Positions 34,518-37,345 of a DNA stretch of 64,000 nucleotides are shown piece by piece. Numbering within the stretch: the first letter of the stretch is position 1; each line of letters opens with the position of its first letter. This DNA comes from Methanomassiliicoccales archaeon (GTDB taxonomy: Archaea; Thermoplasmatota; Thermoplasmata; Methanomassiliicoccales; JACIVX01). Below the pieces are notes generated by a model. It was not told where the DNA came from. It did not search any database and worked only from the letters and a program-made list of their open reading frames with translations. The stretch spans positions 41,902 through 105,901 of the forward strand of contig JAWCLO010000002.1 of NCBI GenBank assembly GCA_038850735.1, in the 5' to 3' direction. The position numbers and the translations under genes were made by a program.

Positions 34518-35063
34518 GTGGAATTAACCGATGTAATTTCATATATCACTAAAGAAGTTCACGAGACGCTCGAGAAGATTGATCCACAAACTGTAGAAGA
34601 AGTTATTAATTCGATCATCAACGCGGAGAAGGTATTCATCTATGGAGTAGGGCGATCTGGTCTTGTTGGTCAAGGGTTTGCAGTAAGACTTGTCCAAATG
34701 GGACTTGACGTTCATTTCATAGGTGAGATGACGACACCAATCGTTGAAGAGCGGGACGTTGTCATAATCGTATCGAATACGGGCGAAACAATGTCTGCAA
34801 TTCAAACAGCAAACATCGTGAGAAGAGTCGGCGCAAAGGTTATTGCTGTAACCTCCAACATCCATTCAAAATTGGGTCAGGCAGCAAACCTTATTGTGGA
34901 AATTTCGCCAAAAAAGGATGAACAGCGCAAGAAACTCGCACCCCTTGGGACGCTATTTGAAGATGCTGCATTTATATTCTTTGACTGCATAGTGCCTCTT
35001 TTGATGTCAAAACTGGATCAGAATGAGACATCACTCCGTCGGCGACACGCGATTTGGGTTTGA
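34518..35063 (+). CDS. hxlB: 6-phospho-3-hexuloisomerase
   Basis: A SIS-domain protein of 181 residues: FIYGVGRSGLVGQGFAVRL and VIIVSNTGETMSA are the sugar-phosphate binding loops, and the C-terminal LGTLFEDAAFIFFD is family-specific. It interconverts hexulose 6-phosphate and fructose 6-phosphate in the ribulose monophosphate pathway that many archaea use to make ribose. The hexulose phosphate synthase partner is not in the window. GTG start. Its 3' end overlaps the convergent JAMM gene by 33 bases. Confidence 0.9.
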   Translation: MELTDVISYITKEVHETLEKIDPQTVEEVINSIINAEKVFIYGVGRSGLVGQGFAVRLVQMGLDVHFIGEMTTPIVEERDVVIIVSNTGETMSAIQTANIVRRVGAKVIAVTSNIHSKLGQAANLIVEISPKKDEQRKKLAPLGTLFEDAAFIFFDCIVPLLMSKLDQNETSLRRRHAIWV

Positions 35064-35693
35064 CTTAATTACTTTTTTTCTTACGCAAGTTCCGTAATAT
35101 GGATTTTCGTATTCATCCCAATAAATTGCAAAAATTCTATTTTTTATTCGTTTCCCTTCAAGGTAAAATGCCTTGATTTCCATATTCATGGGGTCGATAA
35201 CAATTGCTGAATGGGCACGATCACCAAAATACGTCCTTTGGGTATAGAGATCCGTACTGGACATGAAACAGCCATGTCCTGGATGCGAGTGGTACCAACC
35301 CGTAACAATGTAATTGAACCCTGCATCTTCGAGCGCTTGGAATAATTTTTCGAAAGCCCCTCTGTCAAATCGCACGTTCACAAACGTTGACTCGAGATCA
35401 GTCGTAACGATATCCTTTACGAGACTATAGATTCTGCCATTCTCTTTGTATACCCATCCAAGAAGAAGCCCCATCGCCTCCTTTTGTTCACCAGCATATC
35501 TTATTGAATGATTCCTCATTTTCTCCTCGGCAATTCTCGAAACGTACAATTCAAATCCATTCCTTTCCTGCGTAGAGTACTCTCTCAAGTCTTCCTCGCT
35601 TAACCATTTGTGTGGCTTTATTCGCTCGAGGGGTGGTGCTGCTCTCTCCTCTATCTCGATGCTTTCCGCATTCAAAATACGCGGAGTTTTCAA
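35031..35693 (-). CDS. JAMM/MPN+ isopeptidase, Rpn11-like, of the ubiquitin-like cassette
   Basis: The 220-residue protein has a complete JAMM zinc site: E72 in KEAMGLLLG, H135 and H137 in WYHSHPG, S145 and D148 in MSSTD, with the exact H-x-H-x7-S-x2-D spacing. The stretch HSHPGHGCF closely resembles Rpn11/CSN5, including the cysteine before the serine. It presumably cuts isopeptide bonds after the modifier's Gly-Gly. Residues 1-47 are an unassigned extension. Last gene of the cassette; overlaps E2 by four bases (ATGA) and hxlB tail to tail by 33 bases. Confidence 0.93.
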   Translation of the reverse strand: MKTPRILNAESIEIEERAAPPLERIKPHKWLSEEDLREYSTQERNGFELYVSRIAEEKMRNHSIRYAGEQKEAMGLLLGWVYKENGRIYSLVKDIVTTDLESTFVNVRFDRGAFEKLFQALEDAGFNYIVTGWYHSHPGHGCFMSSTDLYTQRTYFGDRAHSAIVIDPMNMEIKAFYLEGKRIKNRIFAIYWDEYENPYYGTCVRKKVIKSNPNRVSPTE

Positions 35694-36199
35694 TCAGATT
35701 TCACCACTTTGGGTAAAGGCGAATAGACAATCGGTGGTATCCTTATCTTCGAATGATTGAAATACGCCGCAGCTGCGGTGCAACTCTCAGTTCCAAATGG
35801 ACTTGAAGGATTTGGCGAAATCAAAAGGGCTTCGATACCTTTGATGAATGATAACAGTGTTGAATTGAAGCTCCATTCATCCAGCAATTTTGTGCAGAGA
35901 TGACCCCCGTCATCTGGCATCATGATATTAGGATGAAAAATCGGCGTCTTCCACCTTACCATAGGTTTCTCAAAAGGATAATTTCTCCCGATCAGAATGT
36001 TGAAACGGTGCTCATACCGCGTCTCTATTCCGTCATCTGTAAATACAAGTCCAGGAACCCCTTTAAGTTCAATTTCAATTTCAATAGGAAAAGAGCGGAG
36101 ATCACCGTCAGGCAGCGCGATAGGGCGTCTCAAATAACGAGCACAAACACTGAGCTCGTTTAGTAATCTTGCCTTCAAGATGTCAGGTGGGAGGGACAT
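35690..36199 (-). CDS. E2-like ubiquitin-conjugating enzyme
   Basis: The 169-residue protein is a UBC fold with canonical features: YPFEKPMVRWKTPIFHPN with the HPN triad at 89-91, catalytic C102 in GGHLCTKLL, the conserved tryptophan of DEWS (W109), and LLISPNPSSPF (126-135) of the post-active-site helices. This is far closer to eukaryotic E2 layout than to divergent bacterial UBC domains. The ATG follows the modifier's TAA without a gap, so the two are translated together. Confidence 0.94.
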   Translation of the reverse strand: MSLPPDILKARLLNELSVCARYLRRPIALPDGDLRSFPIEIEIELKGVPGLVFTDDGIETRYEHRFNILIGRNYPFEKPMVRWKTPIFHPNIMMPDDGGHLCTKLLDEWSFNSTLLSFIKGIEALLISPNPSSPFGTESCTAAAAYFNHSKIRIPPIVYSPLPKVVKSD

Positions 36200-36439
36200 T
36201 TATCCGCCCTCTGGATCTGGTATCAGTTCAAGTTCATCATTGTTCAGAAGACCTGCTTCGGCCACGGTTTGCTGTCCCCGCAGTAGCCTTTTGCCTCTTC
36301 TCAAAACATACGCTCCTGCATCTTTTTCCCAATAGCCAGCGGCTCCCTCTATGATATCGTCAATCGTGTTTTCGCTTTCTAGTTCCATCTCAACAGTTGC
36401 ACCCGACTCCGCATTTCGCACTTTGACCCTCAACGACAT
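36200..36439 (-). CDS. Ubiquitin-like modifier ending in Gly-Gly
   Basis: From ATG 36439 the protein has 79 residues and a beta-grasp layout. MSLRVKV matches the first ubiquitin strand, ENTIDDII the helix start (ubiquitin DTIENV), and LRRGKRLLRG the K48 loop. It ends LIPDPEGG with no residues after Gly-Gly, so no maturation is needed. Lysines are only at 6, 39 and 50; 6 and 50 align with ubiquitin K6 and K48. GTGAT precedes this ATG; an in-frame ATG at 36475 would add twelve residues. Confidence 0.93.
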   Translation of the reverse strand: MSLRVKVRNAESGATVEMELESENTIDDIIEGAAGYWEKDAGAYVLRRGKRLLRGQQTVAEAGLLNNDELELIPDPEGG

Positions 36440-36504
36440 TATATCACAGACAGTTGGAAGTTCTAAAGTCACCATTAAAACTTTTCATCACAGTTAATTA
36501 TTCG

Positions 36505-36522
36505 ATTCTCACAGATGAGAAT
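36505..36522. promoter_or_regulatory. Hairpin between the E1 and modifier genes
   Basis: ATTCTCA (36505-36511) and TGAGAAT (36516-36522) are perfect arms around a four-base loop, in the 120-base gap before the modifier's likely start. An AATAATTAACTG stretch on the minus strand (36491-36502) could be an internal TATA box. Together they could let the modifier be made in excess of E1. Confidence 0.4.
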
Positions 36523-36559
36523 ATCCAATTTCCACAAGTAAATAACAATAATGCGCTGT

Positions 36560-37345
36560 CTAAATGTGAACAGGGCAAGAGGGGTCACGGGAAACCTCAA
36601 GCATCTCATACCTGTTTCGCAGTCCGTCATAGTAAAAAACGTTTGTGATGCAATCTTTGGTTTTGCCGCTGAGGATCTTGAGCCCTTCTCTCACCTGGAT
36701 AGCTCCAATAATACTTGTTGTTGTTATTTCTGCAGCCGTCTTTGGAATATAGACGGAAACTTCCGATCCCGTGCAACTATACCTCACATTCAATGCTCTT
36801 GAATGCGAAAGGTTCATTGTGCACTGCAAACAAGGAGTGTGTGGAGAGATAACAACCTGGACCTTTCCGAGTGTTCCATCCATTCCTCCGTCTATATATG
36901 GTACTCCTTCCCTATATGCATAGGCGTTAAGATGCAATCGAGCTGATATATTGTCAAGGCACCCAAATACTACAGCGAAATTATCTAGAAACTCTAGATT
37001 CATATCCTCCAGCTTCATAACAATAGGATCAATTACCACATAAGGATTAAGTTCTCTTGCTCGCTCTGCTATGACAATCGCCTTTGCTCTTTTGACCGTT
37101 GCGTCATCATCTCTGAAAAATATGCACCTATTCAAATTTGACCGCACGACGAAATCCATATCGACCACGGTGATTGATTGGACGCCTGATAGAACAAGAT
37201 TTTTTACGACTTCATTACCAAGAGCGCCAGCTCCTACGACTAAGCAGTTCGATGCTTTCACTCTATCGAGATTTATCCATCCTATTCGTTTTGCTCTGTC
37301 AAATCGATCATCATCAGTTCTCCCTGGTTTAATCACTGCCGTCAT
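36560..37345 (-). CDS. E1-like ubiquitin-activating enzyme (ThiF/UBA fold)
   Basis: From ATG 37345 the protein has 261 residues. The nucleotide fold shows VVGAGALGNE (GxGxxG at 38-43), an aspartate plus RSNLNR (68-73), and CLDN (129-132). CLQC (172, 175) and C257-P-V-H260 likely bind zinc as Cys3His instead of Cys4. C191 in RYSCTG lies where UBA3 has its catalytic cysteine. Residues 210-225 (TTSIIGAIQVREGLKIL) match the E1 C-terminal helix. I chose this start because a TATA box is 27 bases upstream; ATG 37390 is the alternative. Confidence 0.92.
   Translation of the reverse strand: MTAVIKPGRTDDDRFDRAKRIGWINLDRVKASNCLVVGAGALGNEVVKNLVLSGVQSITVVDMDFVVRSNLNRCIFFRDDDATVKRAKAIVIAERARELNPYVVIDPIVMKLEDMNLEFLDNFAVVFGCLDNISARLHLNAYAYREGVPYIDGGMDGTLGKVQVVISPHTPCLQCTMNLSHSRALNVRYSCTGSEVSVYIPKTAAEITTTSIIGAIQVREGLKILSGKTKDCITNVFYYDGLRNRYEMLEVSRDPSCPVHI

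What the first reader, a model, noticed from the sequence alone, without database searches (positions are those of the whole stretch)
35031..37345. Complete E1-modifier-E2-JAMM ubiquitin-like cassette in a Thermoplasmata-like archaeon
Four minus-strand genes run E1, modifier, E2, isopeptidase with gaps of 120 bases, zero and a four-base overlap. Each has its catalytic residues: E1 GxGxxG plus C191; E2 HPN and C102; JAMM E72/H135/H137/S145/D148; modifier ending in Gly-Gly. Known archaeal E1-E2-ubiquitin sets are from Caldiarchaeum and Asgard archaea; bacterial analogues include the four-gene Bil system. Most euryarchaea have only E1 (UbaA) plus SAMP. I know of no characterised set in this lineage. 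Gene order differs from Caldiarchaeum, and no RING gene is included.
Basis: partly seen in the sequence, partly recalled or inferred. Interest (0 to 1): 0.95.

Follow-up and report, generated by a model that had tools for sequence, protein, structure and literature searches.

The report
Archaeal ubiquitin-like cassette plus RING partner
An order of archaea that includes a cultured gut species carries a compact four-gene set, plus a separate RING-finger gene that is missing from every surveyed member of the order lacking the set's conjugating-enzyme gene, and together these genes likely tag proteins with a small ubiquitin-like protein much as our own cells do.

Summary
Window 35031-37345 (minus strand) encodes E1, a Gly-Gly-tailed modifier, E2 and a JAMM peptidase with the stated catalytic residues. 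ThiF, UQ_con and JAB pass their Pfam cut-offs; the modifier does not, but its profile aligns with human ubiquitin. The cassette is ordinary equipment of the order Methanomassiliicoccales: E2 occurs in 50 of 61 genomes, Methanomassiliicoccus luminyensis included, and in 59 of 292 sampled across the phylum. Beyond the window lies a likely missing piece: a RING-finger gene on another contig, between hdrA and ftsZ/proteasome genes, in 49 of 61 genomes. It is absent from all 11 E2-less genomes, flanks intact, and from one E2-bearing genome (73% complete). A tree needs 6 changes of E2 presence. In other families of the phylum the same RING domain sits in or beside the cassette, though it also occurs without E2. 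Seven modifier-like frames in E2-less genomes all lack the Gly-Gly end. Most likely this is a working E1-E2-RING pathway with an Rpn11-like deconjugase and an unusually small E1; nothing was tested biochemically. The M. luminyensis JAMM was reported as Rpn11-like in 2015; I found no paper describing the whole set.

The parts
36560..37345 (-). E1-like activating enzyme, 261 aa, ThiF/MoeB size; candidate catalytic Cys191 at 36773-36775
   Evidence: ThiF 2.3e-53; G-x-G-x-x-G, R14, R73, K88, D131, C172, C175, C191, C257, H260 invariant in 25 rows; profile matches ubiquitin/NEDD8 E1 (UBA1/UBA3) at 5e-41, MoeB at 1.2e-29
36200..36439 (-). ubiquitin-like modifier, 79 aa, ends PDPEGG (Gly-Gly codons 36203-36208)
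   Evidence: 39-94% identical to the window's in 24 other rows; hhalign 88.8% to human ubiquitin; Pfam ubiquitin below cut-off
35690..36199 (-). E2-like conjugating enzyme, 169 aa; HPN motif and catalytic Cys102 at 35894-35896
   Evidence: UQ_con 2.9e-14 over cut-off; only PF00179 match in its genome; HPN and Cys invariant in 24 rows; best solved relatives UBE2A/Rad6 type
35031..35693 (-). JAMM (Rpn11-like) isopeptidase, 220 aa, TTG start overlapping the E2 stop by 4 bases
   Evidence: JAB 1.5e-10 over cut-off; E-HxH-S-D invariant in 23 rows; profile matches yeast Rpn11 4e-26, Caldiarchaeum Rpn11-like protein 1.4e-21, CSN5 1.8e-20

Best explanation
This is a four-gene E1-modifier-E2-JAMM cassette, conserved through the archaeal order Methanomassiliicoccales, that together with an unlinked RING-finger gene likely forms a ubiquitin-like protein-tagging pathway: the E1 is predicted to adenylate the PDPEGG-tailed modifier and load it on C191, the E2 would take it on C102, the RING protein would help pass it to lysines of target proteins, and the JAMM would trim precursors and remove the tag. 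Shown by sequence: gene order, catalytic residues, strong purifying selection on the modifier, RING and E2 absent from the same genomes of the order, and no Gly-Gly end on modifier-like frames where E2 is gone. Inferred: every catalytic step, the RING's ligase role, and the fate of tagged proteins. The genome has two proteasome-family subunits, so degradation is possible but untested.
For: (1) E1-modifier-E2 in the same order in 49 of 49 other order genomes that have E2, a JAMM frame in 47, one of these degenerate. (2) In 97 modifiers distinct over their last 60 residues PDPEGG is kept in 96 and PDPQGG in 1; 49 end at GG and 48 carry further residues, which would need trimming (two tails ending GGG and one extension holding its own GG re-read by eye). 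(3) The modifier evolves slowest: dN to G001 is 0.043, against 0.165 (E2), 0.217 (JAMM) and 0.279 (E1). (4) E2 in 50 of 61 genomes, RING in 49 of 61; all 11 E2-less genomes lack RING; the one discord, G003, is 73% complete. Of seven further order genomes listed in the phylum sample two have both and five neither. (5) In 11 of 11 E2-less regions hdrA, rnp and psmA flank the spot and RING is missing; RING is there in 43 of 47 E2-bearing regions, and the other 4 fetched regions do not reach it (sites). (6) The tree of 57 genomes needs 6 changes of E2 presence, at least 4 on well-supported branches; RING went with E2 in 4 of 4 independent pairs. (7) The RING domain sits inside or next to the cassette in families f17, f31 and f34, and is fused to a JAMM in f41. 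(8) Modifier-like frames were found in 7 of 11 E2-less genomes and none ends in Gly-Gly. (9) Two E2-bearing genomes without a working JAMM (G011 degenerate, G020 none) have modifiers ending exactly at GG.
Against: No conjugate, thioester or structure was seen; structure prediction was off. The modifier fails the Pfam ubiquitin cut-off. The window genome's RING is below Pfam cut-offs (PF14446 20.3 against 29.1 bits; PF13639 20.8 against 27.3); of seven RING proteins scanned only L187 passes PF14446. Of 49 distinct order RINGs 38 have all eight zinc ligands; the 11 that fail the pattern are all of family f6, M. luminyensis included, 9 of them by a Cys replaced by Ser or Thr. In 292 phylum genomes RING occurs without E2 in 19 and E2 without RING in 9, so the domain also has other uses. 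The co-loss sign test on independent pairs cannot reach 0.05 (p = 0.125); the Fisher value 2.9e-11 ignores kinship. Joint losses could reflect general gene loss. Five of the seven modifier-like frames of point 8 are weak matches (E 2e-9 to 1e-5 for four, 4e-11 for one) and need not all be relics.
Confidence: 0.8

Rival explanations
1. E1-E2 conjugation is real but needs no RING; the RING/zinc-ribbon gene is unrelated and was lost alongside by general gene loss in some lineages.
For: RING is unlinked to the cassette in the order regions read; all 11 RINGs of family f6 fail the eight-ligand pattern; RING without E2 in 19 of 292 genomes and E2 without RING in 9; the phylogeny-aware test is underpowered.
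Against: 11 of 11 E2-less genomes lack it with flanks intact, at least 4 supported changes, no counter-example in the order but one 73%-complete genome; the RING is physically in the cassette or fused to a JAMM in other families.
Confidence: 0.2
2. The set is a sulfur-carrier or cofactor pathway (ThiS/MoaD/SAMP type) with a vestigial E2.
For: E1 has MoeB length without a separate Cys domain or ubiquitin-fold domain; modifier weak in Pfam.
Against: E2 HPN and Cys invariant; E1 profile closer to UBA1/UBA3 than to MoeB; E1 is far under the UbaA cut-off (94.7 of 450 bits), while the genome has another ThiF protein with 220.7 bits to the same model; JAMM Rpn11-like.
Confidence: 0.07
3. It is an anti-phage system like the bacterial Bil or Bub operons.
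For: Same four activities; PADLOC E1-E2 models match the E1 (best 2.1e-13) and JAB models the JAMM (best 4e-6).
Against: The best PADLOC E1 match covers only positions 323-444 of a 593-position model, and the E2 has no match better than 0.062; neighbours look like housekeeping genes (named by eye); order-wide presence with clustered absences, not the scattered pattern recalled for defence islands.
Confidence: 0.04

Closest known systems
Caldiarchaeum subterraneum / Asgard ubiquitylation operons (PMC5654768 and PMC6043591; passages read)
   Same: Modifier, E1, E2, RING and an Rpn11-type JAMM; tails after Gly-Gly occur in some relatives here as in the Caldiarchaeum pro-ubiquitin.
   Different: Here the E1 is 261 aa, without room for the C-terminal ubiquitin-like domain that the 2017 paper discusses for archaeal E1s; the JAMM is in the same operon and strand; the RING is unlinked in this order; the tail is acidic PDPEGG.
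Rpn11-like JAMM of Methanomassiliicoccus luminyensis WP_019177758 (PMC4453063, section 10 read) and group 'JAMM-3' (PMC6043591, passages)
   Same: Very likely the same JAMM family as here (inferred from the species; the accession was not compared).
   Different: What I read describes the protease by itself or as a cluster; no paper I found describes the modifier, E1, E2 or RING of this order.
SAMP/UbaA system of Haloferax
   Same: E1-activated small modifier in a euryarchaeal archaeon.
   Different: E2 and E3 are not required there (PMC11354881, passage); E1 here is not UbaA.
Bacterial BilABCD (PMC11354881, passages)
   Same: Modifier, E1, E2, JAB in one operon.
   Different: BilA has two tandem ubiquitin-like domains and BilD two adenylation domains; here one of each.

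Membership tests
Caldiarchaeum/Asgard-type ubiquitylation operon | Modifier with C-terminal Gly-Gly | tested here: met
   PDPEGG in 96 of 97 distinct modifiers, PDPQGG in 1
Caldiarchaeum/Asgard-type ubiquitylation operon | Modifier of ubiquitin fold | tested here: inconclusive
   hhalign 88.8%, Pfam below cut-off; structure prediction off
Caldiarchaeum/Asgard-type ubiquitylation operon | E2 of UBC family with HPN and Cys | tested here: met
Caldiarchaeum/Asgard-type ubiquitylation operon | E1 with C-terminal ubiquitin-like (UFD-like) domain | tested here: not met
   E1 261 aa, the Pfam ThiF match ends at residue 259; 252-274 aa in the relatives, starts chosen by script
Caldiarchaeum/Asgard-type ubiquitylation operon | RING gene in the operon | tested here: not met
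   None in the window by two patterns; candidate on another contig; in-cluster only in other families
Caldiarchaeum/Asgard-type ubiquitylation operon | Rpn11-type JAMM | tested here: met
   Rpn11 4e-26
Caldiarchaeum/Asgard-type ubiquitylation operon | Conjugation activity | not testable with these tools
   needs biochemistry
BilABCD | Tandem-domain modifier and two-domain E1 | tested here: not met
   79-aa single-domain modifier, 261-aa E1
SAMP/UbaA | UbaA equivalog E1 | tested here: not met
   94.7 bits against cut-off 450
Prok-RING_1 (PF14446), for the RING gene | Score over the curated cut-off | tested here: inconclusive
   L187 30.2 against 29.1 passes; window genome 20.3 does not

The most novel reading that the evidence does not exclude
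A complete eukaryote-style tagging pathway (activator, conjugator, RING ligase, Rpn11-type deconjugase) is an ancient, vertically inherited trait of many Thermoplasmatota outside the Asgard and Aigarchaeota lines. It runs on a stripped-down E1 with no ubiquitin-fold domain. In one order the ligase gene stands apart from the operon in the proteasome/ftsZ neighbourhood. The pathway is present in a cultured gut methanogen, so it can be studied in living cells.
Probability: 0.6. Interest if true: 0.9.

Novelty: new variant of a known kind. Interest (0 to 1): 0.8.

Why it matters
Archaeal E1-E2-RING tagging has been reconstituted from an uncultured thermophile (PMC5654768) and inferred in Asgard archaea. 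This set is widespread in another major archaeal group and occurs in Methanomassiliicoccus luminyensis, a gut species known in culture (recalled), so the biology of a non-eukaryotic ubiquitin pathway could be tested in cells. The small E1 bears on how E2 transfer arose before the ubiquitin-fold domain. Repeated natural losses give a built-in experiment on what the pathway is for. The window modifier's acidic PDPEGG tail would leave a 25-residue stub after trypsin, so standard diglycine proteomics would miss it.

Tried and rejected
A first RING pattern over the window and the cassette loci found nothing; the Pfam model on ten whole genomes and then a looser ligand pattern found the family. Frames between E1 and modifier in L113, L115, L117 and L118 showed no evident accessory gene by eye. 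'E1 UBL JAB E2' (L090) and 'E1 E2 UBL JAB' (L130) are artefacts of sorting stop-to-stop frames, not new gene orders. In one search my RING table took a wrong zinc domain for many proteins; one search replaced it. A link to Bil-type defence and to UbaA/SAMP was considered and rejected. The promoter and terminator scan gave 9 and 3 sites against 6.1 and 2.1 expected; it uses bacterial consensus and was not used. No tree with Asgard, Caldiarchaeum or Bil proteins was built: no listed hit bore such a name (capped lists: 80 of 337, 120 of 622 and 120 of 247; most proteins unnamed). PAN ATPase, a SAMP/MoaD gene and the fate of E1 in E2-less genomes were not searched.
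Full report
OBSERVATION. Searches confirm four minus-strand genes in the order E1 (36560-37345), modifier (36200-36439), E2 (35690-36199), JAMM (35031-35693), with gaps of 120, 0 and -4 bases. Pfam accepts ThiF, UQ_con and JAB over their cut-offs and not the ubiquitin model. No NCBIfam match shown reaches its cut-off (25 of 34 shown for E1). The E2 is the only PF00179 match in a 1.66-Mb genome that is 98% complete, and none of 14 control genomes has one. 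The genome holds one further ThiF protein, which is closest to MoeB/UbaA-type models.

LINEAGE. G001, of the same genus, has its locus on a 7,991-base contig, as does a Methanomassiliicoccales archaeon record found by E2. The E2 of G028 is 100% identical to a protein named for Methanomassiliicoccus luminyensis. The genome-contig scan found 337 loci coding for a relative; the 80 kept bear Methanomassiliicoccales, Methanomassiliicoccaceae, Methanomassiliicoccus, Methanomethylophilaceae, Thermoplasmata, Thermoplasmatota, Euryarchaeota/euryarchaeote or plain archaeon titles. The other 257 were not seen.

CONSERVATION. E2 occurs in 50 of 61 genomes of the order sample and in 59 of 292 genomes of the phylum sample, 5 of the 59 being weak partial matches. 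I read the loci of the 49 other order genomes with E2. E1, modifier and E2 are present in 49 of 49 and a JAMM frame in 47: L019 ends at the contig edge, L052 has none, and the JAMM in L051, counted among the 47, has lost its HxH motif. In 153 loci, some of them records of the same genome and two of the window's own, the order E1-modifier-E2-JAMM is found in 121 and modifier-E2-JAMM without nearby E1 in 21. ATP-site, zinc and catalytic residues of E1 are invariant in 25 rows, HPN and Cys of E2 in 24 rows, and the JAMM residues in 23 rows (the degenerate L051 was not in that alignment). Residue roles are recalled from known E1, E2 and JAMM enzymes.

WHAT THE PARTS RESEMBLE. The E1 profile matches UBA3, UBA1 and UBA2 (5e-41 to 1e-36) ahead of MoeB (1.2e-29) and ThiF, yet the protein has MoeB length and so lacks the Cys-domain insertion and the C-terminal ubiquitin-fold domain of eukaryotic E1s (domain names recalled). 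The JAMM profile matches yeast Rpn11 at 4e-26, the archaeal Rpn11-like protein of entry 6fjv (taken as Caldiarchaeum's; species recalled) at 1.4e-21 and CSN5 at 1.8e-20. The E2 profile matches UBE2A/Rad6-type E2s at 1.5e-13. The modifier profile is only weakly ubiquitin-like in the PDB search: single ubiquitins score near 0.01-0.1, and the lower values there come from summed repeats of polyubiquitin. hhalign against human ubiquitin gives 88.8%.

THE MODIFIER. Among 97 modifiers distinct over their last 60 residues, 96 keep PDPEGG and one has PDPQGG. Forty-nine end exactly at GG, like the window's own, and 48 have further residues (with three tails re-read by eye). The modifier is the slowest-evolving of the four genes. 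In E2-less genomes a modifier-like frame was found in 7 of 11 (G019, G029, G041, G047, G050, G053, G055). None of the seven ends in GG. G019 is a clear match (7.9e-23); the other six are weaker (4e-12 to 1e-5), and those of G029 and G050 lie in longer frames. The frame of G019 sits between the SIS-domain-like gene and the tRNA-ligase-like gene (names by eye), the place of the cassette in the window. So in these genomes the tail is kept where E2 is kept and is not found where E2 is gone.

THE RING. A PF13639 scan of ten genomes gave matches at E up to 0.1 in all ten, only one over the cut-off; the window genome's was sub-threshold (7.8e-5) at G000 contig 1, about 251.8-252.5 kb. The protein has 230 aa: a C-x2-C ... 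C-x-C-G-K-x-F-H-x2-C ... C-P-x-C finger followed by zinc ribbons. It lies next to an ftsZ-like gene and close to psmA-, SBDS- and exosome-like genes (most named by eye; psmA). With a 13-row domain alignment I scanned the same 61 genomes: 49 have it. The 12 without it are the 11 without E2 plus G003, a 73% complete genome. Fisher p is 2.9e-11, not corrected for kinship. Seven further order genomes are listed in the phylum sample: G296 and G305 have both, G227, G233, G236, G312 and G316 neither. I then fetched the psmA region for 58 genomes, 47 with E2 and 11 without (G002, G003 and G004 had no usable one). In 43 of the 47 the RING is in its place beside hdrA and ftsZ/rnp/psmA; the other 4 fetched regions do not reach the RING found. 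In all 11 E2-less regions hdrA, rnp and psmA are there and no RING is.

INDEPENDENT LOSSES. A five-marker tree of 57 genomes needs 6 changes of E2 presence, at least 4 on well-supported branches. RING goes with E2 in 4 of 4 independent pairs, sign test p = 0.125, which is the floor for 4 pairs. The tree itself cannot tell gains from losses; the modifier-like frame at the cassette site of G019 and the intact flanks point to losses.

RING BEYOND THE ORDER. In 292 phylum genomes (E2 at 1e-3, RING at 1e-4), 50 have both, 9 E2 only, 19 RING only and 214 neither. In G065 and G076 (family f17) the finger ends a protein of over 3,000 aa, coiled-coil-like by eye, lying between E1 and the modifier; in G093 and G099 (f34) it ends a long frame just before E2; in G081 (f31) the order is RING-E1-modifier-E2; in G133 (f41) it is fused to a JAMM. 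This physical linkage is the strongest sign that the finger belongs to the pathway. Against a simple story, of 49 distinct order RINGs 11 fail the eight-ligand pattern. All 11 are of family f6, M. luminyensis included, and in 9 a Cys is replaced by Ser or Thr. A hydrophobic segment before the finger is found in 31 of 49 but not in the window genome's protein.

MECHANISM. Most likely E1 activates the modifier, E2 carries it, RING promotes transfer, JAMM trims and removes. Every chemical step is inferred. The natural JAMM losses (G011, G020) occur with modifiers that need no trimming, which fits a processing role but is only two cases from one genus.

PRIOR KNOWLEDGE. PMC4453063 (passages and section 10 read) named the M. 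luminyensis JAMM WP_019177758 and the Caldiarchaeum one as the two archaeal Rpn11 orthologs. PMC6043591 (abstract and passages) defines 'JAMM-3' and says that JAMMs closer to Rpn11 lie in operons with Ub, E1 and E2, without naming taxa in what I saw; it may already include these proteins. PMC5654768 (abstract and passages) reconstituted the Caldiarchaeum cascade and mentions a third cluster in a supplement I could not read. PMC4327156 (passages) reports archaeal Ub components in Aigarchaeota, Crenarchaeota and one marine group II genome; its main text holds no 'Methanomass' or 'Thermoplasm'. Passages of PMC11188069, PMC11354881 and PMC9071458 say nothing of this set. Ten paper searches listed no paper that, by title, abstract start or the passages opened, describes the full set in this lineage; most listed papers were not opened, and subscription papers are largely outside the library. 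Public annotation already names the E2 of M. luminyensis 'ubiquitin-conjugating enzyme E2'.

VERDICT. Real, conserved, and a new variant of a known kind: archaeal ubiquitylation with a minimal E1 and a likely unlinked RING partner, in a lineage with cultured members.

Noticed in passing
L184:6288-6980 (-), G000 contig 1, outside the window: RING plus zinc-ribbon gene between hdrA and ftsZ/psmA, present and absent together with E2 across the order sample.
   Followed up: yes
L185:1164-10631; L199:1619-11170: Proteins of more than 3,000 aa, coiled-coil-like by eye, with a C-terminal RING, lying between E1 and the modifier in two Thermoplasmatota genomes.
   Followed up: partly
L186:5941-11031: 1,696-aa membrane-type protein ending in a RING followed by a JAMM domain; the neighbouring 1,309-aa protein also ends in a RING.
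   Followed up: partly
L051 and L052 (G011, G020): JAMM degenerate or missing while E1, modifier, E2 and a weaker RING match remain; modifiers there end exactly at GG.
   Followed up: partly
L194:472-903 (G000 contig 24): A second, sub-threshold JAMM-like frame in the window genome, on a 5.5-kb contig that also carries an integrase-like frame (by eye).
   Followed up: no
L123 and L124: One Thermoplasmata genome (SG225.bin14) with two E2 genes standing alone, without modifier, E1 or JAMM found in the fetched stretches.
   Followed up: no
L198:1140-2342: An exosortase-like membrane protein fused to the same RING domain.
   Followed up: no
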